The notes under the pieces: generated by a model | The model's input: only the letters and a program-made list of their open reading frames with translations | The model's database searches: none | What the model was told of the DNA's origin: nothing | Assembly: GCA_001899065.1 (NCBI GenBank) | Contig: MKUZ01000016.1 | Location: 1 to 64,000 of the forward strand | DNA length: 64,000 nucleotides | Direction: 5' to 3' | Source: Devosia sp. 66-22 | Lineage (GTDB): Bacteria > Pseudomonadota > Alphaproteobacteria > Rhizobiales > Devosiaceae | Part shown: positions 40,607-56,179 of the stretch, one piece after another | How positions within the stretch are numbered: position 1 is the stretch's first letter | Layout: each line of letters opens with the position of its first letter | Position numbers and translations under genes: made by a program

Positions 40607-41116
40607 ATGCTGGGGTCTTGGACGATTGGGCGCGCCGCGGCGTGGATTGCCCTGTTCTTCGCACTCGCTCTGCCGTTGAGCGTTCTCGCGCAGGACATGA
40701 CGCTGACGCTCAATGCGCAGCCGGGCACCTTCACGGGCAAATGGGTCTATCGCAGCTTCTCGGTGAGCTCGAAGCCTGGAGATACCCTCGCCAAGCTCGC
40801 CCTCGGCCTCAATGAGCTCGAACTGACCGAGCAAAACGGCCGCATTGTCGGCAAGCGCATCGGGCAGGGGGTCAATTACGACCTGAGCGGCATTGCGCGC
40901 TACATCGCCAAGCAGGGCGCCACGATCCGGCTCACGGGGCAGGCGACGATCAGTGGTAAGACCTACAATTACGACTATTTCGGCTACCTCATCCCGGCCT
41001 GGAGCGTGAACGGCGCGGCGCAGCCCGACACCATCATGGGCACGGTGCTGCGCAGCGATCCGGCCAATCCGTCCGACGCGCCGCTGATCGCGTCCTTCGC
41101 CGCCACACGCGAGTAG
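40607..41116 (+). CDS. Exported hypothetical protein
   Basis: A 169-residue protein with a signal peptide (cut after VLAQ, about residue 29) and a beta-rich mature domain (GKWVYRSFSVSS..., TIRLTGQATISGKTYNYDYFGY). No family was recognised. It is monocistronic, with a CtrA-type box 65 bases upstream, so its expression may follow the cell cycle. Confidence 0.78.
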   Translation: MLGSWTIGRAAAWIALFFALALPLSVLAQDMTLTLNAQPGTFTGKWVYRSFSVSSKPGDTLAKLALGLNELELTEQNGRIVGKRIGQGVNYDLSGIARYIAKQGATIRLTGQATISGKTYNYDYFGYLIPAWSVNGAAQPDTIMGTVLRSDPANPSDAPLIASFAATRE

Positions 41117-43229: not shown

Positions 43230-43310
43230 ATGACGTCGATGCAGCTTCTCGTCCTGTTCGCCGCGGTCATGCTGGTCCTCGCCATCGGCGCGGCGAGCGT
43301 GTTCATCTAG
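43230..43310 (+). CDS. Possible 26-residue hydrophobic peptide
   Basis: A frame encoding MTSMQLLVLFAAVMLVLAIG plus six residues, a single membrane helix. It ends overlapping the 3' end of the convergent condensation-domain gene by 8 bases. Low confidence as for its neighbour. Confidence 0.28.
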   Translation: MTSMQLLVLFAAVMLVLAIGAASVFI

Positions 43311-44580
43311 CGCCGTCGAGCAGGCCTACCGCCTGTGCCGCGAGGGCAGTGACTTCCTCTTCCGAAATCGCCGAGGCCGAATAGCCGATCGACAGATCGA
43401 TCCCGCCGTCGCGCTCACTGGCGATGACAAAGAGCGAGGGGCCGAACATGTCGAGCGACACCGCCATGCTCACGTCCTCCAGTTCGTAGGCGCCGTAGAC
43501 GCGGCGCAGTCCCGACTCGCCCGCCGTCGTCACGGCGAGGCCGTCGATACGGCGGTATTGAGTGGCCATGCCGCGGATCTCCTTGCGGTAGACCTCCCAG
43601 TCGAACAGTTTGAGGATACTCGCCGGCCCCTGGTCCTTGGCGAGCGTCGTGATGAGGCGGAACGACACCTCGCGTGCCGTCTTCCACAGATCGTCGCCGA
43701 TCGGGTTGGTGGTGCGCATGATGTCGATGTAGCAGCCATAGGTCTCGGCATGGAGGGCCGGCTTCATCAGGCGCCGCAGGTCGATCGTGGTCAGCACCGA
43801 CATCGCGTCGAGCCCGTAGCGTTGCCGCATAGCCAGCAGGAACGAGGCGGTGATCAGGCCGTGCAGGGTCGTGCGGTTGGCCTTGATCGCGGCCCGCAGC
43901 GTCTCCGCCTCGTTGGCGCCGATGCGACGGCTGAGGATGTGCGTTTCCATCCTGGGCGCCGGCAGCGGCAGCTTGGGCAGCCGGATGGCAGGCTCGTAGC
44001 CGCGGGTGCCGCTGTCGGGCTTGACGGGCAGGCCCGTTTCGAGCGGCGGCGGCAGGCTGGTGTGCACCGGGCGGCGCTGCCGCGCTTCCGACGGGTCGGC
44101 GAGATATTCGAGCAACTGGCGGCTCAGCATGTTGCCGGACTGGGCGTCGAGGGTGGCGTGGTCGGCGCACACGACAATGTGGCTGAGCTCGGCGTCGGCG
44201 TTCTGCCGTACGAGCGTGATGCGGAGGCGCGGATGCCGGCCGCGCTTGATCGGCGTGCGCAGTTCCTTTGCCAGCACCTGCCGCCACGCCTCCGGATCGG
44301 GGTCGTCGACGATGTGCAGCGGAATGGCCGACGTGCCTTCGGTGACGAAGCTCGGCTGCCGGTAGACGAAGGGCGGCAGGCTTCGAAAGACGAGGCGGCC
44401 ATAAGTGATGTGGGTGCGCAGGATGGGGTGCAGCGTCTGCAGCCAGTCGAGCGCCTCCTGCAGCAGGCCCGGGTCGAGCCGGCCGCGCAGGTGCAGCACG
44501 CTGGTGGCGATGAGCCCGCCATAACCGTGGAGGTAGTGAAGCAGGCGCTCCTGCTCGCCCAGCTCGCGCGAACCGTTCAC
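43303..44580 (-). CDS. Condensation-domain / acyltransferase-like protein
   Basis: A 425-residue stand-alone member of the chloramphenicol-acetyltransferase-like condensation family (non-ribosomal peptide C domains, PapA-type and alcohol acyltransferases). The active-site motif is ADHATLDAQ: H141 and D145 are kept, while the first His and the final Gly of HHxxxDG are replaced by Asp and Ala. The GTG at 44580 is preceded by GGAGG. It is divergent, by 65 bases, from a carrier protein gene and near an AMP-forming ligase gene. It probably transfers the carrier-bound acyl or aminoacyl group to an unknown acceptor. Confidence 0.8.
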   Translation of the reverse strand: MNGSRELGEQERLLHYLHGYGGLIATSVLHLRGRLDPGLLQEALDWLQTLHPILRTHITYGRLVFRSLPPFVYRQPSFVTEGTSAIPLHIVDDPDPEAWRQVLAKELRTPIKRGRHPRLRITLVRQNADAELSHIVVCADHATLDAQSGNMLSRQLLEYLADPSEARQRRPVHTSLPPPLETGLPVKPDSGTRGYEPAIRLPKLPLPAPRMETHILSRRIGANEAETLRAAIKANRTTLHGLITASFLLAMRQRYGLDAMSVLTTIDLRRLMKPALHAETYGCYIDIMRTTNPIGDDLWKTAREVSFRLITTLAKDQGPASILKLFDWEVYRKEIRGMATQYRRIDGLAVTTAGESGLRRVYGAYELEDVSMAVSLDMFGPSLFVIASERDGGIDLSIGYSASAISEEEVTALAAQAVGLLDGAR

Positions 44581-44645
44581 GATCGTCCTCCGCGCAGTTT
44601 CCAGCCGCGTTTCGATCTGGCTATATCGCCTGCGTGAGGGATTCG

Positions 44646-44897
44646 ATGAACAGCTACGAACAGCCGATCCTGGATTTTGTCGCCGGCGCCGCCGCCGAAG
44701 CGGGCGGCGGCGCGATGGTTGCACGCGATACGCCGCTGCTCGAAACGGGCATGCTGGATTCGATCAACCTTGTCCGACTGATCCAGTTCATCGAGGAGCG
44801 CTTCGGTATTTCGGTGCCCGACAGCGATTTCGGCCCGGACCTGTTCGAGTCGCCGGCGTCGCTGGCGGCTTATGTCGAGCGGCGCAAGCAAGGTTAG
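44646..44897 (+). CDS. Stand-alone acyl/peptidyl carrier protein
   Basis: An 83-residue carrier protein with the phosphopantetheine site LDSINL (S39) and the four-helix pattern of ACP, PCP and DltC proteins (FIEERFGISVPDSDF). ATG at 44646 follows GAGGG. It is divergent from the condensation gene and converges with the AMP-ligase gene, the two stops overlapping by 4 bases. It is the likely shuttle between the ligase and the acyltransferase. Confidence 0.88.
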   Translation: MNSYEQPILDFVAGAAAEAGGGAMVARDTPLLETGMLDSINLVRLIQFIEERFGISVPDSDFGPDLFESPASLAAYVERRKQG

Positions 44898-46357
44898 AGC
44901 TCCAGCAGCTTGGCGCGCAGCAGCTTACCCGTCGAGCTGCGCGGCAGGGCGTCGAGGAAAGCGACCTCGGTCGGCACCTTCTGCGACGACAGCCGCGCCC
45001 GGGCAAAGCGGACGATCTCGTCCTCCGACACTTCGTCCCGGCGCACGACATAGGCACGCAGCTTGTTGCCATTGCGTGCGTCCGGAACGCCGGCCACCGC
45101 CAGCTCGGCGACAGCGGGATGAGCGGCGAGGGTGTCCTCGACCTCGATCGGGTCGATCTTGTAGCCCGACACTTCGATCAGCAGCTTGCTGCGGCCCTTG
45201 ATGTAGATGCGCCCCGCTTCATCGAGGCTGGCGAGATCGCCGCTGCGGAACCAGCCGTCGTCGAAGGCAAGGGCGTTGGCCGCGGCGTCGCCGAGATAGC
45301 CGCGCATCAGCGACGAGGAGCGGATGAGCAGTTCGCCCACGTCGTCGCCGAGTCCGGTGTCGGCAGCCGCGATGCGGACCTGGGCGTCGCCCGCCGGCTT
45401 GCCCACCGAGGCCCAGGTCGCATCGGGATCGGCGGCGTCGTTATGCGACACCATGATCGCCTCGGTGGAACCATAGGCCTGGCGCAGCGCGATGCCGAAG
45501 CGCGCCTGCACGGCGTCGAAGGTCGAGCGCTTGAGTGCCGCGCCGCCGGAGAAGGCGATGCGCAGGCTGAGATCGAAATCGCCCGCTTGTGCGGCGATGA
45601 TGTCGTACATGGCCGGCACTGCCCCCATCAGCGTCACGCGCTGGCGGACCATCGCCTCGAGCAGCTTGCGCCGCGACAGAGCGAGCGGCAGCGGATCGCT
45701 CCAGTAGAACGTCGTCGCACCGCCGCTGAGGGTGTCGATCACGCCCATCAGGAAGCCCATGGCGAAGTTGGGCGGCAGGATGTTGACCACGACGTCGTCG
45801 GGCTGCAGCTTCCAGGCGCCGCTGGTCCGCGCGCCGTCCGCCAGGATCTCGGCATGGGTGTGCGGCACCACCTTGGGCAGGCCCGTCGAGCCCGAGGAGA
45901 ACAGGTACAGCGCCGGCGTGTCGGCCGCGAGCGCCGGCAGGGGCATCGGAGCGGTCTCGATCGCGGCGAGATCGGTGGTGACGAACAGCACCGCTCCAGG
46001 CGCAACGTCAGCGATGAGCACTTCCGCTGCGGCTTTGCTCGCAGGCGTGGCGACCACAGCCGACGGCGTCGCCTTCCCAGCTAGAGCCGCGAGTTCGGCG
46101 CGGGTCGCAGTCGGGCCGAGCGGCATGGCGATGGCCCCGATGGCGAACAGTGCGTGGGCGACAGCGAAGATGTCGGGCGAGTTGGGAATGAGGAGGGCGA
46201 CGACGTCACCCCGGCCGATGCCGCGATTGGCGAAGCCGGAGGCGAGGCGCTCGATGCGCCGGGCCAGAGACGGGTACGGGAAGACGTCCTCGCCCTTGCG
46301 CAGCCCGCTCGTTTCGGGGGCCGTCGCGGCGACCTGAAGCAGCCGGTCGAAGATCAC
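44894..46357 (-). CDS. AMP-forming acyl/aryl/aminoacyl ligase
   Basis: A 487-residue ANL-family adenylating enzyme: P-loop-like FSSGSTGLPK (153-162), the YGSTEA motif (about 300), GWFRSGDLA (about 375) and catalytic-type lysine K478 near the C-terminus (STGKLLR). The family includes acyl-CoA and benzoate ligases and amino-acid adenylation enzymes. With a free carrier protein beside it, loading of the carrier is the most likely job. The substrate cannot be read without a specificity comparison. Confidence 0.88.
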   Translation of the reverse strand: MIFDRLLQVAATAPETSGLRKGEDVFPYPSLARRIERLASGFANRGIGRGDVVALLIPNSPDIFAVAHALFAIGAIAMPLGPTATRAELAALAGKATPSAVVATPASKAAAEVLIADVAPGAVLFVTTDLAAIETAPMPLPALAADTPALYLFSSGSTGLPKVVPHTHAEILADGARTSGAWKLQPDDVVVNILPPNFAMGFLMGVIDTLSGGATTFYWSDPLPLALSRRKLLEAMVRQRVTLMGAVPAMYDIIAAQAGDFDLSLRIAFSGGAALKRSTFDAVQARFGIALRQAYGSTEAIMVSHNDAADPDATWASVGKPAGDAQVRIAAADTGLGDDVGELLIRSSSLMRGYLGDAAANALAFDDGWFRSGDLASLDEAGRIYIKGRSKLLIEVSGYKIDPIEVEDTLAAHPAVAELAVAGVPDARNGNKLRAYVVRRDEVSEDEIVRFARARLSSQKVPTEVAFLDALPRSSTGKLLRAKLLEL

Positions 46358-46417: not shown

Positions 46418-47035
46418 CTAGCTGAGAGGAATGCCCTTCCGGCCCTTGTCGCGCTGGTAGATGGCGCTGAGATCGGCGTAGAGCGCCGTGAGGTCGTCGA
46501 CGCGCGCCGTCAACTTCTCCTTGTTGCCGCGGTCGAGGCCGGCGATCATCCGCGACATGTCGTGGCTGGCAAAATAGGCGTTCGTCCGGTTGTAGAGGTC
46601 GCGCCCTGGGGCCGCGGCCGCACGATCCGGATCGGGCACGGCATAGACCGCCTTGAGGATCTGGATGTCGTAAGGAATGGCGAAGCTGTCCGCCGAGTCC
46701 TGATGCGAGAACAGGTAGTAGAAATTGTCGAAGCCCGACCACGTTATGCCGCTCAGGCACAGCGAACAGGGTTCGTGTGTGGCCAGGAACAGGCAGTCCT
46801 TGGGCGCGGGGTGGCCGGCCATCTCGTAGAAGCGCTTGATGGCATGCATCTCGCCGTGCCAGAGCGGATTCTCGATTTCGTTGTTGGTCTCGGCAACCAC
46901 CAGCGACAGGTCCTGCTTGCGCAGGATCGCGGCGCCGAACAGCTTGTTGCCGGCTTCCACGCCCGATCGCGTGCGGGGAGCGATGTCGTTCTCAATGACG
47001 TCAAGCAGGCGGCTCAGAAGGGCAGGAGTATCCAT
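46418..47035 (-). CDS. Nucleoside/cytidine-deaminase-fold protein
   Basis: A 205-residue zinc deaminase: H60-x-E62 (WHGEMHA) and C90-x2-C93 (PCSLC), the CMP/dCMP-deaminase zinc site. An extended C-terminal region (about 130-205) is unusual for tRNA deaminases, and the protein may act on a free base or nucleoside. The ATG at 47035 shares one base with the stop of the upstream gene. It lies close to the purine genes, which may be its context, but this is not proven. Confidence 0.8.
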   Translation of the reverse strand: MDTPALLSRLLDVIENDIAPRTRSGVEAGNKLFGAAILRKQDLSLVVAETNNEIENPLWHGEMHAIKRFYEMAGHPAPKDCLFLATHEPCSLCLSGITWSGFDNFYYLFSHQDSADSFAIPYDIQILKAVYAVPDPDRAAAAPGRDLYNRTNAYFASHDMSRMIAGLDRGNKEKLTARVDDLTALYADLSAIYQRDKGRKGIPLS

Positions 47036-47784
47036 CAACGCTCGAAGGTGACTGTTGGCTTTCCGTTGCTATCAAGCAGGGTCAGCACGTCGTTGTCGAG
47101 CACCCATGCGACGGAAGCCTTGAGGGCCTCGAAATAGCTCTGCTCGAGCATGTTTCGCTCGTAGAAGCAGGAGCGCTGTGTCCGCGACAGGTCGCCAAGG
47201 GCGAAGCCGGTTTCGGTGAGGGTGGCGGGCGCGAAGTAGGAGTTGCAGCCGCCCACGCCGCCGGCGCGCATGTCGCTCTCGATCTGCAGCGTCACCTCAA
47301 TCCCCGGTGGAACCGGCGTGTCCCCGATCGCTGTCGCCTGCCAGGTGACGTTGAGCAGCGGCAGATCCTGCGGCGCTGCCGCCGGCTCGCTCGACGGCTC
47401 CGCGATCTGCGCCACGAGGCCGGTGACGATCACCACCGGCTCGACCTGCGCCAACGGTGTCACCGGGAACGGTTGGGCGTTGCGAAAGCGCAGGTCGCCG
47501 GCCCGTATCTCGGCGTTGAGCGCGTAGTCGTGCTGCGGCAGGATCAGGCTGTCCTCGAACGTCAGGGTGAAGGCGAGCGGCACCTGGCCCGGCCCGGTGG
47601 GCGCCGACACGCTGAGGCGCGGGCGATCAGGCAGCGCCAGATCCACCAGCTCGATGCTGAGGATTGCCGTCTCCGGCAGCGCGACGCGCTCGTGATAGGT
47701 AACTTCGCCGGCGAGCTGCACCGGTGCTGCGAGGGCCGGCGCCGCGAGCAGCAGCAAGGCAGTCGGCAGGGCGGCTCTGAGCAT
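47035..47784 (-). CDS. Exported YbaY/META-domain protein
   Basis: A 249-residue exported protein: signal peptide (cut after ALAA), an N-terminal beta domain like the YbaY family (VQLAGEVTYHERVALPETA, about 22-110) and a C-terminal META-type domain (about 150-249; GGCNSYFA, TQRSCFYERNMLEQ). Both domains are found in envelope or stress proteins. ATG at 47784 with GGAGG upstream. It is translationally coupled to the deaminase gene, for no obvious reason. Confidence 0.8.
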   Translation of the reverse strand: MLRAALPTALLLLAAPALAAPVQLAGEVTYHERVALPETAILSIELVDLALPDRPRLSVSAPTGPGQVPLAFTLTFEDSLILPQHDYALNAEIRAGDLRFRNAQPFPVTPLAQVEPVVIVTGLVAQIAEPSSEPAAAPQDLPLLNVTWQATAIGDTPVPPGIEVTLQIESDMRAGGVGGCNSYFAPATLTETGFALGDLSRTQRSCFYERNMLEQSYFEALKASVAWVLDNDVLTLLDSNGKPTVTFER

Positions 47785-47849: not shown

Positions 47850-48341
47850 TCAGGTTGCCTCGACCACCCACGGCTCGGCGAAGAAATGCTCTTCGAGATT
47901 GTTGCCCTCGCCGCCGCGGTCGACGCACAGGAAATCGGCGTCGGCTCCGAGCGGCGTCAGCACGCCATGCCACGTGTTCATGGCAATGTTCACGCCCTGA
48001 CCCGGCCCGGTGAGGAAGGCGCGCGGCGTGCCCGGGGTGCCCGATTCGTCGGGCGCGACGACGACGAGGAAGGGATGTGAGGACAGCGGGTAGAAGGCCT
48101 GGCTGCCGAGCGGGTGCCGCTCGAGCATCTTGAGGGGCAGTGGCAGGGTGAAATGCCGCGAATGCATCAGCGAGATCAGCGGGCGAGCGTGGACGCCGCC
48201 GAGCTCAACCCGCGCCAGGTCGTGGTAGCGTTGGCAGTTGCCGGAGTTGATGGGGTAGTTGTGTGCGCCCTCCTGCTCGATGACCTGGCCGAAGGGCGCG
48301 AAAGCGTCGCGGGTGAGCGGTTCGGTGCGAAGCGTGCGCAT
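47850..48341 (-). CDS. allA: Ureidoglycolate lyase
   Basis: A 163-residue ureidoglycolate lyase, beta-barrel family: FAPFGQVIE near the N-terminus, HSRHFTLPLPLKMLERHPLGSQAF (about 60-84) and NTWHGVLTPL (about 122-131) are typical. It splits ureidoglycolate into glyoxylate and urea at the end of purine degradation. It starts 4 bases after the ureidoglycine aminohydrolase stop, in one operon. Confidence 0.9.
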   Translation of the reverse strand: MRTLRTEPLTRDAFAPFGQVIEQEGAHNYPINSGNCQRYHDLARVELGGVHARPLISLMHSRHFTLPLPLKMLERHPLGSQAFYPLSSHPFLVVVAPDESGTPGTPRAFLTGPGQGVNIAMNTWHGVLTPLGADADFLCVDRGGEGNNLEEHFFAEPWVVEAT

Positions 48342-48345
48342 GCCG

Positions 48346-49167
48346 CTAATACCGCAGCTTGGCGTGGCGGTTGACGTCCTTGTAGAGCAGGTAGCGGAAC
48401 CTGTCGGGGCCGGCGTAGCAGGCCTGCGGGCAGAAGGCGCGCAGCCACATGAAGTCGCCCGCCTCGACCTCGACCCAGTCGCGGTTGAGGCGGTAGACGG
48501 CCTTGCCCTCGAGCACGTAGAGGCCGTGTTCCATCACATGGGTCTCCTCGAACGGGATGACGGCGCCCGGCTCGAGGGTGACGATGTTGACATGCATGTC
48601 GTGCGACACGTCGGCGGGGTCGACGAAGCGTGTCGTCCCCCAGCGGTTCTTGGTGTCGGGCATCCAGCGGATGGGCTCATCCTGCTCGTTGGCGACGAAC
48701 GCATTGGGAACGGCGATCCCCTCGACGACGTCGTAGGCCTTGCGGACCCAGTGGAAGCGCACCGGCGCCTTGGACTTGTTAATGAGCTTCCACCTGCAGC
48801 CCGGCGGCAGATAGGCATAGGCGCCCGGCTTCAGGGCATGGTTCTTGCCCTCGATCGTAAGCGTCGCCTGGCCCGAAACGACGAACAGCACGCCCTCGGC
48901 GGCAGGGTCGGGCTCGGGCTGCGTACTGCCGCCACCGGGAAGGACCTCCATCACATATTGCGAGAAGGTCTCGGCAAATCCGCTCAGCGGCCGCGCGATG
49001 ATCCAGGCGCGGGTGCCGCTCCAATGCGGCAAGGCGCTCGTCACGATGTCGCGCATCACGCCGCGCGGGATCAGGGCGTAGGCTTCGGTGAACACGGCGC
49101 GCTGGGTGTGGAGCGCGGCCTGCGGCGGCAGGCCGGCGGCGGGAGTGGCGTAAGGGGTTGGGGCCAT
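48346..49167 (-). CDS. allE: (S)-Ureidoglycine aminohydrolase
   Basis: A 273-residue bicupin: N-terminal cupin (LFVVSGQATLTIEGK, GAYAYLPPG) and C-terminal cupin (EETHVMEHGLYVLEGKAVYRL) with the manganese-site histidines. It removes ammonia from ureidoglycine to give ureidoglycolate, which AllA then cleaves. The ATG at 49167 was chosen over a longer cysteine-rich N-terminus that looks non-coding. Neighbouring genes belong to the same pathway. Confidence 0.9.
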   Translation of the reverse strand: MAPTPYATPAAGLPPQAALHTQRAVFTEAYALIPRGVMRDIVTSALPHWSGTRAWIIARPLSGFAETFSQYVMEVLPGGGSTQPEPDPAAEGVLFVVSGQATLTIEGKNHALKPGAYAYLPPGCRWKLINKSKAPVRFHWVRKAYDVVEGIAVPNAFVANEQDEPIRWMPDTKNRWGTTRFVDPADVSHDMHVNIVTLEPGAVIPFEETHVMEHGLYVLEGKAVYRLNRDWVEVEAGDFMWLRAFCPQACYAGPDRFRYLLYKDVNRHAKLRY

Positions 49168-49295
49168 TTGTCGTGACAGGTGAGTGGTGACTGCTTCGTG
49201 TTTAGAGCAGAACCAGCCCGCCACAAAGGGGTGACGCCCTGGGCATCCGTGCCGCCTTCGCAATCCGGTAAGAAATCGGGCGCAATCTGGGCAGC

Positions 49296-49481
49296 ATGAG
49301 CATGCCCGCGCCACACCATCCCGCTGGCCCCATGGCCGAGTTCATCGAGCGCCACGAAACGTTGCGCACGATCATGGAGTGGATTGCCGACCGCTTCGCC
49401 GACGCGCCTCAGACCGACGACACGATCGACTGGGAAGACGGCGAGGATCACGACGAGCCGCACGGGCCCGCGACGCTCTAG
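49296..49481 (+). CDS. Small acidic hypothetical protein
   Basis: A 61-residue acidic protein (DDTIDWEDGEDHDEPHG) with a short helix (MAEFIERHETLRTIMEWIADRF). No family recognised. It overlaps the 3' end of the next leftward gene by 4 bases. The start (49296 or an internal ATG at 49332) is uncertain. Confidence 0.45.
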   Translation: MSMPAPHHPAGPMAEFIERHETLRTIMEWIADRFADAPQTDDTIDWEDGEDHDEPHGPATL

Positions 49482-49696
49482 CGCCGGACAAGGCGCATCA
49501 CAAATCGCACTAGGTGCATCGCCAGCCACAGCGCGAGCGCCAGCGCGCCAACCCCCAGCAGCAGGCCGACCCCCGGAACCAGCGCTCCGGCAAGCTGCCA
49601 GGGCGCAAGTTCGCCGGGCGTCGGTGCGACATAGACGGCCCAGCCGGCGACCAGCACGAGGACGATTGCCGCAAAGAGGTACAGAACGAGGCCCAT
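49478..49696 (-). CDS. Two-helix membrane hypothetical protein
   Basis: A 72-residue protein with two hydrophobic segments (about residues 3-22 and 32-58) and a basic C-terminus (HLVRFVMRLVRR). It lies 9 bases after the glutathione-S-transferase-like gene on the same strand, likely in one transcript. Function unknown. Confidence 0.65.
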   Translation of the reverse strand: MGLVLYLFAAIVLVLVAGWAVYVAPTPGELAPWQLAGALVPGVGLLLGVGALALALWLAMHLVRFVMRLVRR

Positions 49697-49705
49697 GGGC
49701 CTGGC

Positions 49706-50398
49706 CTACACCTTCTCGGGCGCGCGCATGTCCTCGATGATCGTGCCGACGACGCGCGATTCTTCGTCGTGCGGGTGGTCGCGGAAGTCCTCGGCGAGGG
49801 CAGCCCTGGTCCAGTCCTGCATGGCGGGGAGGGCGAGCAGCCGCTGGGCGTAGGCCCGCGCCTCGTCGCCCACCGGCGGGTTGTAGGTTTGGAGGCGGTA
49901 AGCGACTGGCGCGAAGAAGGCGTCGACGGCGGTGAAGGTGCTCCCGGCGAGCCAGGGACCGCCGAAGCGGGTGAAGCCGTCGTGCCAGAGGGCGTCCAGG
50001 CGCGCGAGGTCGCCCTTCAGGCCTTCGGTCACCTCGTGCAGCTTCACGCGGATGCCGACATTCATGTTGCAGATGTTGCGCAGGTGCTGGAAGCCGCTGT
50101 GCATCTCGGCCGCCGCGGAGCGGGCCCAGGCGCGGGCCCTGCCGTCCTTCGGCCAGACGATGTCGTGGCGCTCGGCGAGATACTCGACGATGGCGAGGGA
50201 GTCCCACACGGCCGTGTCGCCGTCGACCAGCAGCGGCACCTTGCCAGTGGGCGAGAACCCGGTGAAGCTCTTGCCGCCGACATTGGGCACGAAGCGATGA
50301 ACCTGTTCCTCGAATGGGATTCCAGTTGCCTTCATCAGCACCCAGGGGCGCAACGACCAACTCGAATAGTTCTTGTTGGCAATATGCAGCGTGTACAT
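49706..50398 (-). CDS. Glutathione S-transferase family protein
   Basis: A 230-residue GST: thioredoxin-like N-terminal domain (MYTLHIANKNYSSWSLRPW, the SWSLR motif; VPLLVDGD, AIVEYLAE) and an all-helical C-terminal domain (from about 88). It may act in detoxification or, as in some purine loci, in maleylacetoacetate-like isomerisation; the substrate is unknown. AGGAGTCACG precedes the ATG at 50398. Confidence 0.87.
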   Translation of the reverse strand: MYTLHIANKNYSSWSLRPWVLMKATGIPFEEQVHRFVPNVGGKSFTGFSPTGKVPLLVDGDTAVWDSLAIVEYLAERHDIVWPKDGRARAWARSAAAEMHSGFQHLRNICNMNVGIRVKLHEVTEGLKGDLARLDALWHDGFTRFGGPWLAGSTFTAVDAFFAPVAYRLQTYNPPVGDEARAYAQRLLALPAMQDWTRAALAEDFRDHPHDEESRVVGTIIEDMRAPEKV

Positions 50399-50456
50399 CG
50401 TGACTCCTCGTGTTGCCTTGGCCGGGCGACCCTGAACGGGACCACCTGCCGATCGG

Positions 50457-51878
50457 CTAAAGCTCTGGAAGGATGGCGCGGAGGCGGAGCAGGGCAATGC
50501 GCTCCACCTGGCCGCAGGCGGTCTTGAACTCGGTGTGACGGTCATTGCCCACGCGCGTGTGCATGGCCGACAGGATCATGTCCTTGGTGTTGTCGCGCAC
50601 GGCGATGATGAAGGGGAAACCGAACTTGGCGACATAGGCCGCGTTCAGCTCCTCGAACTGCCCGCGCTCGCCGTCGGTGAGGGCATCGAGCCCGGCGCTG
50701 GCCTGCTCGGAGGTCGAAGCCTCGGTGAGGCGGCGCGCCTGCGCCAGTTTGCCGGCGAGGTCGGGGTGGGCGCGGAGAACGCCGAGACGCTCTTCGTCGC
50801 TCGCCATGCGGAACTGGCTGCGCAGGGCGAAATGCAGCCCCGTCGCGGTGTCGCTGGCCGGGCCGAGTTCGCCGTCGAAGGCACGTTCGGCGATCCAGGG
50901 CGAATGCTCGAAGATCGAACCGAAATGCCCGACGAACTGCGTGCGGTCCATCTCTGAGGGGACGTAGTCCGGCGCCTCGTAGGGATGATGCCGCGCCCAG
51001 TGATGGGCAATATCGATCCGGCGGGCGATCCAGACCTTGTCCTTCGAACGCACGTAGTCGAGGAACTTCCGGAGGCCGGCGAAGCGGCCGGGCATGCCGA
51101 CGAGACGGCAGTGGAGGCCCAGCGACATCATCTTGGGCGAGCCGAGGCGGCCCTCCTCATAGAGGACGTCGAAGCTGTCCTTGAGGAAGGTGTGGTATTC
51201 CTCGCCATTGTCGAAGCCCGGCGCGGTGACGAAGCGCATGTCGTTGTTGGCGAGGCTGTAGGGAATGACGAGCTGGGGCCGGCCACGGTGGGGGCGCCAA
51301 TAGGGCAGGTCGTCGTCATAGGTGTCGGAGACGTAGTCGAAGCCGCCTTCCTCGGAGACGAGGTCGACGGTCGCGAGCGAGGAACGCCCGGTGTACCAGC
51401 CATAGGGGCGCTCGCCGGTGGCGACGGCATGGAGCCGGATCGCTTCGACGATCGCCGCGCGTTCTTCGGCTTCAGGCATGTCCTTGTGCTGAATCCATTT
51501 GAGGCCGTGCGAGGCGATCTCCCAGTCGGCCTCCAGCATAGCGGCGACCTGCTGCGGCGCGCGCATCAGGGCGGTGGCAACGCCGTAGACGGTGACCGGA
51601 AGCCTGTTGGCGGTGAAGTACTTCCAGAGCCGCCAGAAGCCGGCCCGCGCGCCATATTCATACATCGACTCGACGTTGGCGTGCCGCTGGCCCGGCCAGG
51701 GCGCCGCGCCGATCACATCGGAGAGGAAGGCTTCCGATGCCGCGTCGCCATGGAGGACGTTGTTCTCGCCGCCCTCCTCGTAGTTGAGCACGATCTGCAC
51801 CGCCACATAGGCGCCGCCGGGCCATTTGGGGTCGGGCGGCGTGCGGCCATAGCCGAGCAGGTTGCGGGGGTATCTCAT
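50457..51878 (-). CDS. puuE: Fused PuuE allantoinase / UraD OHCU decarboxylase
   Basis: A 473-residue fusion. Residues about 1-305 form the polysaccharide-deacetylase-like allantoinase PuuE (GYGRTPPDPKWPGGA start, HGLKWIQHKDM, YNYEEGG-type). Residues about 310-473 form 2-oxo-4-hydroxy-4-carboxy-5-ureidoimidazoline decarboxylase (LRAHPDLAGKLA with the catalytic histidine). The decarboxylase makes S-allantoin, which the other half hydrolyses to allantoate. The order of domains is the reverse of the pathway order. ATG at 51878; divergent from uraH. Confidence 0.93.
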   Translation of the reverse strand: MRYPRNLLGYGRTPPDPKWPGGAYVAVQIVLNYEEGGENNVLHGDAASEAFLSDVIGAAPWPGQRHANVESMYEYGARAGFWRLWKYFTANRLPVTVYGVATALMRAPQQVAAMLEADWEIASHGLKWIQHKDMPEAEERAAIVEAIRLHAVATGERPYGWYTGRSSLATVDLVSEEGGFDYVSDTYDDDLPYWRPHRGRPQLVIPYSLANNDMRFVTAPGFDNGEEYHTFLKDSFDVLYEEGRLGSPKMMSLGLHCRLVGMPGRFAGLRKFLDYVRSKDKVWIARRIDIAHHWARHHPYEAPDYVPSEMDRTQFVGHFGSIFEHSPWIAERAFDGELGPASDTATGLHFALRSQFRMASDEERLGVLRAHPDLAGKLAQARRLTEASTSEQASAGLDALTDGERGQFEELNAAYVAKFGFPFIIAVRDNTKDMILSAMHTRVGNDRHTEFKTACGQVERIALLRLRAILPEL

Positions 51879-51905
51879 GTTGCACCCGGACGTCGGAAGG
51901 TTCCG

Positions 51906-51917
51906 CTTGTTAACAAG
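51906..51917. promoter_or_regulatory. Palindromic operator candidate between puuE and uraH
   Basis: CTTGTTAACAAG, a perfect 12-bp palindrome in the 166-bp divergent gap, 28 bases upstream of the puuE-uraD start. It could be bound by a purine-pathway regulator that controls both directions. Confidence 0.5.
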
Positions 51918-52044
51918 GCTGGGCCGGCCCGCAAATGGGGCGTCGCCGCCGAATCTGGACCAAACGGTAAAAAATTGGCCATGGCCCCCTTGGATTGTGA
52001 CAGAATTTTCCGGATAGTCGGCTGAACAGAACAGGAATGCACCA

Positions 52045-52395
52045 ATGGCGGGGCGCCTGACGACCCACGTTCTCGACACCATGCACGGCAAACCGGCCGC
52101 CGGTTTGCGCTTCGATTTGCTGATGCTGCACGGCGACCACAGCCACTATTTGATCTCGGGGCTGACCAATGACGACGGGCGCGCGCCCGGGCCGCTGCTC
52201 GAAGGCGACCATTTCCATTTGGGCGGCTACGAGCTGATCTTCCACGTCGGCGCCTATTTCCAGAGCAAGGGCGTCGACCTCGAGACGCCGTTCCTCGACC
52301 TGGTGCCGGTGCGGTTCACGATGACGGAGATGGCGCACTACCACGTCCCGCTGCTGGTCTCGCCCTACGGCTACTCGACCTATCGGGGGAGCTGA
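52045..52395 (+). CDS. uraH: 5-Hydroxyisourate hydrolase
   Basis: A 116-residue transthyretin-like protein: THVLD (7-11) near the N-terminus and the diagnostic C-terminal YRGS (113-116). It hydrolyses 5-hydroxyisourate, the direct product of urate oxidase. It overlaps the next gene by one base (TGATG). No signal peptide, so it acts in the cytoplasm. Confidence 0.95.
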   Translation: MAGRLTTHVLDTMHGKPAAGLRFDLLMLHGDHSHYLISGLTNDDGRAPGPLLEGDHFHLGGYELIFHVGAYFQSKGVDLETPFLDLVPVRFTMTEMAHYHVPLLVSPYGYSTYRGS

Positions 52396-53849
52396 TGGGC
52401 GCCCTGCGATTCATACTCAATGATGACGACGTCGAGATCACCGAGATCGGCGCGACGACAACGCTGCTCGACTATCTGCGGCTGACCAGGCGGCTGCGCG
52501 GATCGAAGGAAGGCTGCGCCGAGGGCGATTGCGGGGCCTGCACCGTGCTGGTCGGCCGGCTGCGCGGCGGCGAGCTCGCTTACGAGACGGTCAATGCCTG
52601 CATCTGCTTTATCGGCATGCTGCACGGCACGCATGTGGTGACGATCGAGCATCTGTCGCCGGCCAACGGGCCGCTGCATCCGGTGCAGCAGGCCATGGTC
52701 GACCTGCATGGCAGCCAATGCGGCTTCTGCACGCCCGGTATCGTGATGTCGCTTTACGGCCTGTGGATGCGCAATCCCCGCCCCACGGTGCCGCAGATCG
52801 AGATCGCGCTGCAGGGCAATCTCTGCCGCTGCACGGGCTACGCGCCCATCGTCAAGGCCGGGCTCGCAATGTCGAGCTATGGCGATGTCGCGGCCGATCC
52901 GCTGGTCGCCCACCGCGAGGCGATGCTGGCGCGGATCAGGGGGCTGCAGGACGGCCAAACCGTCGATATCGGAGTAGGCAAGAACCGCATTATCGTGCCG
53001 GCAACGGTCGATGAGCTGGCGCGGATCTATGCCGAGACCCCCACGGGCACGCTGGTGAGCGGCGCCACGGATGTGGGCCTGTGGGTCACCAAATTCATGC
53101 GCGACATCGGCCCGATGATCTATATCGGGCATCTCGACGAGCTGCATGCCATCCGCGAGGCGGAAGGCGAGCTCGTGCTCGGTGCCGCCGTCACCTACAG
53201 CGAGGCGACCGGCGCCATCGAGCGGCATTTCCCGCAACTCGGCGAGTTGTGGATGCGCATCGGCGGCGGCCAGGTGCGCAACGCCGGTACGATCGGTGCC
53301 AATATCGCCAATGGCTCGCCCATCGGCGACACGCCGCCGCCGTTCATTGCGCTGGGCGCGCATATCATCCTCCGCAAGGGCAATGAGCGACGCGAGGTGC
53401 GGCTGCGCGACTTCTTCATCGCCTATGGCAAGCAGGACCGACAGCCGGGCGAGTTCGTCGAGCAGGTCAGAATCCCTTACCTGCCGGCCGGCGAGAAGCT
53501 TGCCTGCTACAAGGTGACAAAGCGCAAGGACGAGGACATCTCGGCCCTGTGCGGCGCGTTCCGCGTGTTCGTCAATGACGACGGCAATGTGGGGATGATC
53601 CGCATCGCCTTCGGCGGCATGGCGGCGACGCCCAAGCGCGCCGTGGCGGTGGAAGAGGCGCTGATCGGCAGGCCGTGGACGACGACGACGATCGAAGCGG
53701 CGATCCCGGCTTTCGCGACCGATTACCAGCCGCTCACCGACATGCGGGCGAGCGCCGAGTACCGTCTGCTTGCAGCGCAAAACCTGCTGCGGCGTTTCCA
53801 TCTCGAAACCACAGGCTCGGCGGAACGGCTGAGCAAGGCGGTGGCATGA
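52395..53849 (+). CDS. xdhA: Xanthine dehydrogenase small subunit
   Basis: A 484-residue subunit with two [2Fe-2S] centres (C41, C46 and C49 in EGCAEGDCGACT; GFCTPG and NLCRCTGY for the second) and an FAD domain (about 190-480; GATDVGLWVTK). It passes electrons from the molybdenum subunit to NAD. The following xdhB overlaps by 4 bases (ATGA). Confidence 0.95.
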   Translation: MGALRFILNDDDVEITEIGATTTLLDYLRLTRRLRGSKEGCAEGDCGACTVLVGRLRGGELAYETVNACICFIGMLHGTHVVTIEHLSPANGPLHPVQQAMVDLHGSQCGFCTPGIVMSLYGLWMRNPRPTVPQIEIALQGNLCRCTGYAPIVKAGLAMSSYGDVAADPLVAHREAMLARIRGLQDGQTVDIGVGKNRIIVPATVDELARIYAETPTGTLVSGATDVGLWVTKFMRDIGPMIYIGHLDELHAIREAEGELVLGAAVTYSEATGAIERHFPQLGELWMRIGGGQVRNAGTIGANIANGSPIGDTPPPFIALGAHIILRKGNERREVRLRDFFIAYGKQDRQPGEFVEQVRIPYLPAGEKLACYKVTKRKDEDISALCGAFRVFVNDDGNVGMIRIAFGGMAATPKRAVAVEEALIGRPWTTTTIEAAIPAFATDYQPLTDMRASAEYRLLAAQNLLRRFHLETTGSAERLSKAVA

Positions 53850-56179
53850 ACAAGATGGAAGTGAAGGTTCCGGCAACGGGCCGCCTGCATGAATCGACCC
53901 CGCACGATTCCGCGGCCAAGCAGGTTGCGGGCCGCGCCGAATATGTCGACGACATCACCGAGCCCGAGGGCACGCTGCATGCCTATCTGGGCCTGTCGAC
54001 CAAGGCGCATGCCGAGATCGCTTCGCTCGACCTCGACGCGGTGCGCGCCGCGCCGGGCGTCGTCGGCGTGCTGACCGCCGGGGACGTGCCCGGCGAGAAC
54101 GACATTTCGAGCGTCCACAAGCACGACGAGCCGGTGTTCGCCGAAACGCTGGTCAAATACTGGGGCCAGCCGATCTTCTGCGTCGTCGCCGAGACGCGCG
54201 ACGCGGCGCGGCGAGCGGCCAAGCTCGCGCGGATCGAGTATCGCGACCTGCCGCATGTGACCGACGTGGCCGCGTCGCGCAAGGACGGCGGCAAGCTTGT
54301 GACCGAGCCGCTCAAGCTCGAGCGCGGCGATGTCGAGGCCGGGCTGGCCAGGTCGAAGCATCGAGCCAAGGGCACGGTGACGATCGGCGGGCAGGAGCAC
54401 TTCTATCTCGAGAGCCAGATCGCCTTCGCTATTCCGGGCGAGGACGACGAGATCTTCCTCCACATGTCGACGCAGCACCCCACCGAGATACAGGTGATGG
54501 TGGCGCAGGTGCTGGGCGTGCCGCATGCGGCGATCACCGTGAACATGCGGCGCATGGGCGGCGGCTTCGGCGGCAAGGAAACGCAGGGCAATCTGTTCGC
54601 CGTCGTGGCGGCGCTGGCGGCGACGAAGTTCCGGCGCCCGGTGAAGATCCGGCCCGACCGCGACGACGATTTCCAGATCACCGGCAAGCGCCACGACTTC
54701 GTCGTGAGTTACGATGTCGGCTATGACGATGACGGGAAGATCGAAGCGGTTGCAGCGACGTTTGCGGCGCGCGCCGGGTTCTCGGCGGACCTCAGTGGGC
54801 CAGTCACCGACCGTGCGCTGTTCCACTGCGACAATGCCTACTACTACCCGCATGTGCGGGTGAATTCGCTGCCGCTGTTCACCAACACGGTATCGAACAC
54901 AGCGTTCCGCGGCTTTGGCGGACCGCAGGGGATCATGGCCTGCGAGCGCTGGATCGAGCAGATCGCCTACGCACTGGGCAAGGACCCGCTCGAGGTGCGC
55001 AAGGCCAATTTCTACGGTACCGACGATCGCAACGTCACGCCCTACCACCAGACGGTGGAGGACAACATCATCCACCGCGTCGTGGAGGAACTAGAACGGA
55101 GTTCCGACTACCAGAAGCGGCGAGCCGCGGTGCTCGAGTTCAACCGGACGCATGCGGTGCTCAAGAAGGGCATTGCGCTCTCCCCGGTGAAATTCGGCAT
55201 CTCGTTCACGGCGACCTGGCACAACCAGGCCGGGGCGCTGGTGCATGTCTACCGCGATGGTTCGATCCATCTCAGCCATGGCGGCACCGAGATGGGGCAG
55301 GGGCTCCATATCAAGGTGGCGCAGGTGGTGGCGGAGGCGTTCGGGGTCCCCGTCGCCAGCGTCAAGATCAACGCGACCAATACGGGCAAGGTCCCCAACA
55401 CATCGGCGACGGCAGCCTCCTCCGGCACCGATCTCAACGGCATGGCGGCGCTCGACGCGGCCAACCAGATCAAGGCGCGCATGGAGGCGCATACGGCAAG
55501 CATCTACGAGGTCGCGCCCAGCGACGTGCATTGGGAGTTCGGCGGCATCCGTGCCGGCCAGCAGTTCGTGCCGTTCATGCAGCTCGCCGAATCGTGCTGG
55601 ATGAACCGCGTGCAGCTTTCGGCCGCTGGGTTCTACGCCACGCCCAAGATCCACTGGAACCGCGCCAGCGGCACCGGTCGGCCGTTCTACTACTATGCCT
55701 ATGGCGCCTCCTGCTCGGAGGTGACCATCGACACGCTCACCGGCGAGTACCAGATCGACCGCGCCGACGTGGTCGAGGATGTGGGCCGCTCGCTCAATCC
55801 GGCCATCGACATCGGGCAGGTCGAAGGCGGCTTCATCCAGGGCGTCGGCTGGCTGACCACCGAGGAGCTCTGGTGGGACGGCAAGGGGCAACTGCGCACG
55901 CACGCGCCCTCGACCTACAAGATCCCGCTCGCTTCGGACGTGCCGCGCGAGTTCAACGTGTGGCTGGCCGACTGGTCGGTGAACAAGGAGCCGGCGATCG
56001 GCCGCAGCAAGGCCGTGGGCGAGCCGCCACTCTGCCTCGCCTATTCGGTGGTCGAGGCGCTCTCGATGGCCGTCGCATCCGTCGCCGACTACAAGGTCCA
56101 CCCCAACCTCGACATGCCCGTCACCCCGGAACGCGTGCTGCTCGGCGTCGAACGGCTCAAACGGGAGAAGGCGGCCTGA
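53846..56179 (+). CDS. xdhB: Xanthine dehydrogenase molybdopterin subunit
   Basis: A 777-residue molybdenum hydroxylase: AEYVDDI near the N-terminus, GGQEHFYLESQ, RRMGGGFGGKETQ (cofactor), FRGFGGPQG, and near the C-terminus GRSKAVGEPPLCLAYS with the catalytic glutamate. It oxidises hypoxanthine and xanthine to urate. The start at 53846 replaces a longer frame. Its stop shares one base with xdhC. Confidence 0.95.
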   Translation: MNKMEVKVPATGRLHESTPHDSAAKQVAGRAEYVDDITEPEGTLHAYLGLSTKAHAEIASLDLDAVRAAPGVVGVLTAGDVPGENDISSVHKHDEPVFAETLVKYWGQPIFCVVAETRDAARRAAKLARIEYRDLPHVTDVAASRKDGGKLVTEPLKLERGDVEAGLARSKHRAKGTVTIGGQEHFYLESQIAFAIPGEDDEIFLHMSTQHPTEIQVMVAQVLGVPHAAITVNMRRMGGGFGGKETQGNLFAVVAALAATKFRRPVKIRPDRDDDFQITGKRHDFVVSYDVGYDDDGKIEAVAATFAARAGFSADLSGPVTDRALFHCDNAYYYPHVRVNSLPLFTNTVSNTAFRGFGGPQGIMACERWIEQIAYALGKDPLEVRKANFYGTDDRNVTPYHQTVEDNIIHRVVEELERSSDYQKRRAAVLEFNRTHAVLKKGIALSPVKFGISFTATWHNQAGALVHVYRDGSIHLSHGGTEMGQGLHIKVAQVVAEAFGVPVASVKINATNTGKVPNTSATAASSGTDLNGMAALDAANQIKARMEAHTASIYEVAPSDVHWEFGGIRAGQQFVPFMQLAESCWMNRVQLSAAGFYATPKIHWNRASGTGRPFYYYAYGASCSEVTIDTLTGEYQIDRADVVEDVGRSLNPAIDIGQVEGGFIQGVGWLTTEELWWDGKGQLRTHAPSTYKIPLASDVPREFNVWLADWSVNKEPAIGRSKAVGEPPLCLAYSVVEALSMAVASVADYKVHPNLDMPVTPERVLLGVERLKREKAA

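What the first reader, a model, noticed from the sequence alone, without database searches (positions are those of the whole stretch)
43303..46357. Minimal carrier-protein pathway: condensation enzyme, free carrier, AMP ligase
An AMP ligase, a stand-alone carrier protein with its serine site and a condensation-family transferase sit in one 3-kb cluster. No other biosynthetic gene is nearby. The condensation motif is altered (DHATLDA instead of HHxxxDG) yet keeps the key histidine and aspartate. This could build a small ester or amide, such as an acylated metabolite or lipid, by a route that is not a typical peptide synthetase.
Basis: partly seen in the sequence, partly recalled or inferred. 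Interest (0 to 1): 0.7.

Follow-up and report, generated by a model that had tools for sequence, protein, structure and literature searches.

The report
Three-gene carrier-protein acylation module in Devosiaceae
Three small genes found together in some Devosia-like bacteria probably activate an acid, hang it on a carrier protein and transfer it onto a small molecule; it resembles a known gut-bacterial pathway for fatty amides, but its product is unknown.

Summary
The window encodes a stand-alone condensation-fold enzyme (43303-44580, -), a free carrier protein (44646-44897, +) and an acyl-AMP ligase (44894-46357, -). It is not a simple operon: the genes alternate strands, and the carrier and ligase stop codons overlap. 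The unit is real. The same 11 of 136 genomes of the family hold all three proteins, in the same alternating layout in 11 of 11, with condensation-protein identity to the window's down to about 35%. They occupy at least three genomic settings, and in 4 of 5 trio-less relatives examined the site is empty. The motif is (D/N/S)HxxxDA in 11 of 11, against HHxxxD(G/A) in 16 of 16 other relatives in the tree.

Best reading: the ligase adenylates a carboxylic acid, loads it on the carrier, and the condensation enzyme transfers it to a free amine or alcohol. This is the logic of the gut OaaA/OaaACP/OaaC fatty-acid-amide pathway, which shares the altered motif (PMC13142362). By sequence and fold the enzyme sits nearer AzeD/PapA-type stand-alone enzymes. 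Substrate, acceptor and product are undetermined. New variant of a known kind.

The parts
43303..44580 (-). Stand-alone condensation-fold acyltransferase (425 aa, GTG start)
   Evidence: Pfam PapA_C and Condensation over cut-off; AF2 model pLDDT 80 matches AzeD, CmnI and NRPS C domains; start from GGAGG and alignment
44143..44163 (-). Altered active-site motif DHATLDA (second His and Asp kept)
   Evidence: (D/N/S)HxxxDA in 11 of 11 trio members
44581..44645 (.). 65-bp divergent intergenic region shared by transferase and carrier genes
   Evidence: sequence; consensus promoter scan found nothing here
44646..44897 (+). Free-standing carrier protein (83 aa) with DSI phosphopantetheine site
   Evidence: PP-binding over cut-off; ATG behind GAGG; LDS invariant in 11 of 11
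44760..44762 (+). Serine codon of the predicted phosphopantetheine attachment site (Ser39)
44894..44897 (.). Overlapping stop codons (TTAG on the + strand) of carrier (+) and ligase (-)
   Evidence: sequence; stops overlap the same way in the four other genomes that have the trio at this site, from frame ends
44894..46357 (-). ANL-superfamily acyl-AMP ligase (487 aa), the presumed carrier loader
   Evidence: AMP-binding and AMP-binding_C; AF2 model pLDDT 86 matches aryl-acid AMP ligases and acyl-CoA ligases

Best explanation
A self-contained three-protein acylation pathway. The ligase converts a carboxylic acid, fatty or aromatic, to an acyl-adenylate and passes it to the phosphopantetheine arm of the dedicated carrier, which the genome's phosphopantetheinyl transferase has primed. 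The stand-alone condensation enzyme then moves the acyl group from the carrier to the amine or hydroxyl of a freely diffusing small acceptor, releasing an N-acyl amine (slightly favoured) or an ester. Shown: three intact genes, their families, kept catalytic residues, co-inheritance, conserved layout, purifying selection. Inferred: every chemical step, including carrier rather than CoA loading and the acceptor class.
For: The same 11 of 136 genomes hold all three proteins; carrier scores are 115-130 bits in them against 57.1 for the next best. Same layout in 11 of 11. The trio is found in at least three genomic settings; the flanks of the window's site share no match with those of G029 or G006. 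Distances of transferase and ligase correlate at r 0.92 over 36 pairs from 9 genomes. The carrier serine (11 of 11), the condensation His and Asp (11 of 11) and the ligase P-loop, GD and C-terminal lysine columns (9 of 9 aligned) are invariant. No gene is shared by the flanks of the three settings, so no separate releasing enzyme travels with the unit and the condensation enzyme is the likely release step. Change of the first motif histidine is a feature PMC13142362 reports for condensation enzymes that use a free amine and an acyl-ACP. One match to the phosphopantetheinyl transferase family is in the genome.
Against: No chemistry is shown. The closest solved sequence and fold is AzeD, titled a dehydratase, so a C-fold need not mean transfer; AzeD's printed alignment shows PHxxxDG, so loss of the first histidine is not confined to free-acceptor transferases. 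The ligase's top matches are CoA ligases, so CoA loading is not excluded. The alternating gene order is odd for one pathway. A releasing enzyme could be encoded elsewhere in the genome. Membership in the OaaC clade could not be tested, as no OaaC sequence was available.
Confidence: 0.66

Rival explanations
1. Ester-forming PapA-type pathway: the condensation enzyme acylates an alcohol (lipid, polyol or glycan) from the carrier, giving an acylated lipid or wall component. This is a sub-case of the best explanation's scheme with the acceptor fixed as an alcohol.
For: PapA_C is the best Pfam family; in the tree the trio clade is split from ten domains in long NRPS-like frames, together with six stand-alone relatives, by a 100/100 branch; L071, a stand-alone relative, lies near a glycosyltransferase-like gene (identity by reading).
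Against: PapA5 NCBIfam cut-off missed by far (37.3 of 396 bits); the first His is replaced in 11 of 11, unlike 16 of 16 relatives in the tree; no flanking gene is shared by the three settings.
Confidence: 0.3
2. The condensation-fold enzyme does not transfer at all but dehydrates or otherwise modifies the carrier-bound acyl group, as AzeD's structure title suggests, and another enzyme, encoded elsewhere, releases the product.
For: AzeD (8s6l) is the top match by sequence (E 1.6e-25) and fold (TM 0.74), and it too lacks the first His (PHxxxDG).
Against: AzeD is about 22% identical; no releasing gene is shared by the flanks of the three settings. AzeD's function is known to me only from the entry title; paper searches gave me nothing on it.
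Confidence: 0.14
3. The ligase is an ordinary acyl-CoA synthetase and the three genes are functionally unrelated neighbours.
For: Ligase best matches are CoA ligases; genes lie on alternating strands.
Against: Co-occurrence in the same 11 of 136 genomes, same layout in 11 of 11, at least three genomic settings, correlated divergence.
Confidence: 0.07

Closest known systems
OaaA / OaaACP / OaaC fatty acid amide pathway of gut Clostridia (PMC13142362)
   Same: Three free-standing proteins (adenylation enzyme, ACP, condensation enzyme); condensation motif (D/H)HxxxD with S, A or G next, second His and Asp kept.
   Different: Other phylum; first motif residue here is D, N or S, never H, and the last is always A (11 rows); genes alternate strands; the enzyme groups with stand-alone relatives here, whereas the preprint places FAA domains nearest CStarter domains; product unknown.
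PapA5-type acyltransferases (phthiocerol dimycocerosyl transferase)
   Same: PapA_C domain over Pfam cut-off; stand-alone; condensation fold.
   Different: 37.3 bits against the 396-bit PapA5 cut-off; motif lacks the first His; has its own small carrier and ligase.
AzeD of Pseudomonas aeruginosa (PDB 8s6l)
   Same: Best match by sequence and by fold to the condensation protein; first motif His also absent.
   Different: About 22% identity; printed alignment shows PHxxxDG in AzeD; the structure title calls it a dehydratase.
OlsH/OlsI ornithine lipid system with its ACP (PMC12493201, seen only as a search listing with the start of the abstract)
   Same: The carrier's best NCBIfam model is the ACP of this system (39.1 bits).
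   Different: Cut-off 130 bits not met; that route is titled GH3-dependent, and the ligase scores under the Pfam GH3 cut-off (10.3 of 23.6 bits).

Membership tests
FAA condensation domains (OaaC type) | Stand-alone condensation protein beside a free ACP and a stand-alone adenylation enzyme | tested here: met
   11 of 11 genomes
FAA condensation domains (OaaC type) | (D/H)HxxxD motif followed by S, A or G | tested here: inconclusive
   Second His, Asp and final Ala met in 11 of 11; first residue D in 8, N in 2, S in 1, so three rows leave the reported D/H
FAA condensation domains (OaaC type) | Falls in the monophyletic FAA clade nearest CStarter domains | not testable with these tools
FAA condensation domains (OaaC type) | Makes fatty acid amides from acyl-ACP and free amine | not testable with these tools
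   needs biochemistry
PapA5 acyltransferases | NCBIfam PapA5 subfamily cut-off (NF006787, 396 bits) | tested here: not met
   37.3 bits
PapA_C / condensation superfamily | Pfam gathering scores (30 and 30.6 bits) | tested here: met
   38.3 and 35.8 bits
Canonical NRPS condensation domains | HHxxxDG and position in an assembly line | tested here: not met
   (D/N/S)HxxxDA in 11 of 11; separate proteins
ANL acyl-AMP ligases | AMP-binding and C-terminal domains with P-loop, GD and catalytic Lys (motif roles recalled) | tested here: met
   S155, G156, T158, G159, K162, D374, R389, K478 invariant in 9 of 9 aligned
Fatty acyl-AMP ligases (FAAL) | FAAL-specific insertion and plugged CoA pocket (PMC8460268, passages) | tested here: inconclusive
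   487 aa, aligns over nearly its whole length with CoA ligases; no FAAL reference compared
OlsHI ornithine-lipid ACP | NCBIfam NF052616 cut-off 130 bits | tested here: not met
   39.1 bits

The most novel reading that the evidence does not exclude
A second, independently evolved lineage of minimal acyl-amide or acyl-ester synthases: an AzeD/PapA-type stand-alone enzyme in environmental Alphaproteobacteria that lost the first motif histidine in parallel with gut OaaC, makes a so far unknown N-acyl or O-acyl metabolite, and is encoded as a three-gene unit that moves as a whole and whose alternating strands and overlapping stops couple carrier and ligase expression through antisense transcripts.
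Probability: 0.25. Interest if true: 0.68.

Novelty: new variant of a known kind. Interest (0 to 1): 0.43.

Why it matters
Minimal adenylation-carrier-condensation trios are known to me from gut Clostridia, where they make receptor-active fatty amides. A co-inherited trio in Devosiaceae would extend this kind of pathway to Alphaproteobacteria, offer a small set of three proteins for reconstitution, and test whether losing the first HHxxxDG histidine goes with use of a free acceptor.

Tried and rejected
One search (Pfam Condensation in the own genome) returned no match although hmmscan of the protein itself gave 35.8 bits; I take as a miss of its first look and draw nothing from it. A functional link to the neighbouring purine-breakdown genes was considered and rejected: the site is empty in 4 of 5 trio-less relatives examined, of 13 trio-less genomes in the genus (the fifth, G015, is rearranged), and the trio lies elsewhere in G006 and G029. 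An earlier count said 5 of 5; 4 of 5 is right. Distant single relatives: L071, L072 and L073 were judged only from the first residues of nearby frames and three cyanobacterial plasmid stretches from incomplete gene tables; I saw no carrier-ligase pair beside them, but the Crinalium stretch (L076) has an annotated fatty acid-CoA ligase gene about 4.8 kb upstream of its condensation gene. Ligase specificity from pocket residues: alignments were ambiguous around the A4 motif, and the NRPS adenylation domain used for comparison (L008) itself lacks the expected aspartate, so I claim no specificity. Wider surveys gave only distant matches besides the own genome: 1 of 385 class genomes at E 1e-10, 4 of 397 order genomes and 8 of 398 phylum genomes at 1e-8, one genome being in both. 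The ligase survey was read only at E <= 1e-100, so the gap to the next ligases was not seen. The tree has long branches and carries its tool's warning about them. The consensus promoter and terminator scan found one promoter-like site outside the trio and no terminator. Literature: a search for Devosia with condensation domain and acyl carrier protein held no paper; some searches were broad and, apart from PMC13142362, PMC8460268 and PMC10880069 (passages), I saw only their listings. I make no claim that the trio is absent from print.

Full report
What is there. The window is on contig 16 of a 4.36-Mb genome. The nine named relatives are all MAGs: five labelled Devosia, three Hyphomicrobiales, one Alphaproteobacteria; I infer family Devosiaceae from the Devosia labels (lineage), as genomes in the survey are unnamed. 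Three intact genes lie at 43303-46357. The first encodes a 425-residue protein on the minus strand with PapA_C and Condensation domains over Pfam cut-off. The second is an 83-residue carrier protein on the plus strand. The third is a 487-residue ANL acyl-AMP ligase on the minus strand. From the sequence, the transferase starts at GTG 44580 behind GGAGG, the carrier at ATG 44646 behind GAGG, and the ligase at GTG 46357. The starts of transferase and carrier are 65 bp apart and diverge. The stops of carrier and ligase overlap in TTAG (44894-44897).

Is it a unit? The condensation profile finds 11 of 136 genomes of the family at E <= 0.001, in 2 of 16 genera. The carrier profile scores 115-130 bits in those 11, and the next best hit in the family has 57.1 bits. 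The ligase profile, read only at E <= 1e-100, again finds those 11. The layout C(-) carrier(+) ligase(-), or its mirror, is the same in all 11 (7, the other 4), with condensation identity to the window's down to about 35%. In the five genomes that have the trio at the window's site the carrier and ligase stops overlap in the same way. For nine genomes pairwise distances of transferase and ligase correlate at 0.92, transferase and carrier at 0.87, ligase and carrier at 0.83 (36 pairs each); part of this is shared ancestry. dN/dS against the three nearest relatives is 0.16-0.31. Against the more distant G008 copy (L018) it is 0.55 for the transferase, 0.71 for the ligase and 0.26 for the carrier, with dS of 0.7-1.1 that deserve little trust at that distance.

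Where it sits. Five of 19 genomes of the genus, the own one included, have the trio near a deaminase gene, four of them also near a DEAD-box helicase gene. The deaminase itself is in 18 of 19. In 4 of 5 trio-less relatives examined, helicase and deaminase matches end 0.9-1.8 kb apart with no trio match between them; the fifth, G015, is rearranged. In G006 and G029 the trio is in other surroundings: sugar-transport-like genes and an alpha/beta-hydrolase-like gene in one, a flavin-monooxygenase-like gene and others in the other (identities by reading). With the trio masked, the flanks of the window's site have no match (tblastx E 1e-6) to those of G029 or G006; G029 and G006 share only weak, short matches, and G008 and G006 share transporter-like paralogues several kb away. 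For the four remaining genomes the contigs are 3-5 kb long, so their settings are unknown. G006, of the window's own genus, carries a more divergent condensation protein (41%) than G029 of another genus (52%). The unit therefore looks gained, lost or moved as a whole.

Beyond the family. Besides the own genome, a draw of 385 class genomes gave one weak match, 397 order genomes four and 398 phylum genomes eight.

The condensation enzyme. The AF2 model (10 sequences, mean pLDDT 80) matches AzeD (PDB 8s6l, TM 0.74, 22% identity) first, then CmnI and NRPS C domains. By profile 8s6l is also the best solved sequence (E 1.6e-25), followed by PapA5 (3.4e-5), bacitracin synthase 3 (5.5e-4) and SgcC5 (7.9e-4). 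A 100/100 branch splits the trio and six stand-alone relatives (one of them a short frame) from ten domains in long NRPS-like frames; long branches limit this. The motif is DHxxxDA in 8, NHxxxDA in 2 and SHxxxDA in 1 of 11, whereas 16 of 16 others have HHxxxD followed by G or A. AzeD, not in the tree, shows PHxxxDG in its printed alignment, so the first histidine is lost there too. The second His and the Asp are kept in all 11.

The carrier and the ligase. The LDS of the carrier is invariant in 11 of 11. The genome has one match to the phosphopantetheinyl transferase family. The ligase keeps its P-loop, GD, R and C-terminal K columns in 9 of 9 aligned. Its model (pLDDT 86) is closest to the aryl-acid AMP ligase CahJ, with FscC and CoA ligases among the next (TM 0.86-0.88 for CahJ and FscC); its best sequence matches are feruloyl- and fatty-acyl-CoA synthetases. 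It aligns with CoA ligases over nearly its whole length. I could not decide between fatty and aromatic acid, nor between carrier and CoA as the acceptor, from sequence. That the acid lacks an alpha-amino group is a guess from the apparent absence of the FDxS aspartate (recalled motif; my one comparison domain lacked it too).

Mechanism. With no further gene shared by the flanks of the three settings, the simplest scheme is ligase to carrier to condensation enzyme to free acceptor. That is how OaaA, OaaACP and OaaC work. From PMC13142362 (a preprint; abstract, introduction and phylogeny section read in full, other passages by term): these are three free-standing proteins; OaaC joins an ACP-bound fatty acid to a small amine; FAA condensation domains carry (D/H)HxxxDS-type motifs, with the second His over 99% conserved and the last residue Ser 42%, Ala 36%, Gly 17%. 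The trio fits the organisation and most of the motif. It is not shown to be a member: the preprint places FAA domains nearest CStarter domains, while the trio here joins stand-alone relatives, and no OaaC sequence was available to test both together. If the two lines prove separate, loss of the first histidine happened more than once.

Verdict. The kind of pathway is known; the lineage, gene layout and enzyme ancestry are a new variant. The product is open.

Noticed in passing
47850-56179: Purine/ureide breakdown genes: ureidoglycolate lyase (Pfam), a cupin protein, and by reading an allantoinase-type/OHCU-like fusion, a HIU-hydrolase-like protein and xanthine dehydrogenase subunits.
   Followed up: partly
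46418-47038 (-): Deaminase-fold protein (dCMP_cyt_deam_1) next to the purine genes, present in 18 of 19 genomes of the genus, with no NCBIfam match over cut-off; possibly a base deaminase of the purine route.
   Followed up: partly
L078 5488-9298 (own genome, contig 13): A second AMP-ligase-like gene plus carrier (carrier match 6.7e-12) beside asparagine-synthase-like and NAD-synthase-like genes, with exopolysaccharide-like genes near; carrier, NAD-synthase-like and asparagine-synthase-like genes recur in L079 of another genus (identities by reading).
   Followed up: partly
40607-41116 (+): Protein of unknown family (no Pfam match at E 0.01) found in 5 of 19 genus genomes, the same five that have the trio at this site.
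   Followed up: partly
G066 contig 303, 956-2428: The ligase frame of this trio carries one TGA: decay or a sequencing error.
   Followed up: no
L013 6951-8465: A flavin-monooxygenase-like gene (by reading) directly follows the condensation gene in G029 on the same strand; could be a lineage-specific tailoring enzyme.
   Followed up: no
L071 1508-5660: A stand-alone condensation relative with HHAVADA near a glycosyltransferase-like and a transporter-like gene (by reading): possibly a glycolipid acyltransferase.
   Followed up: no
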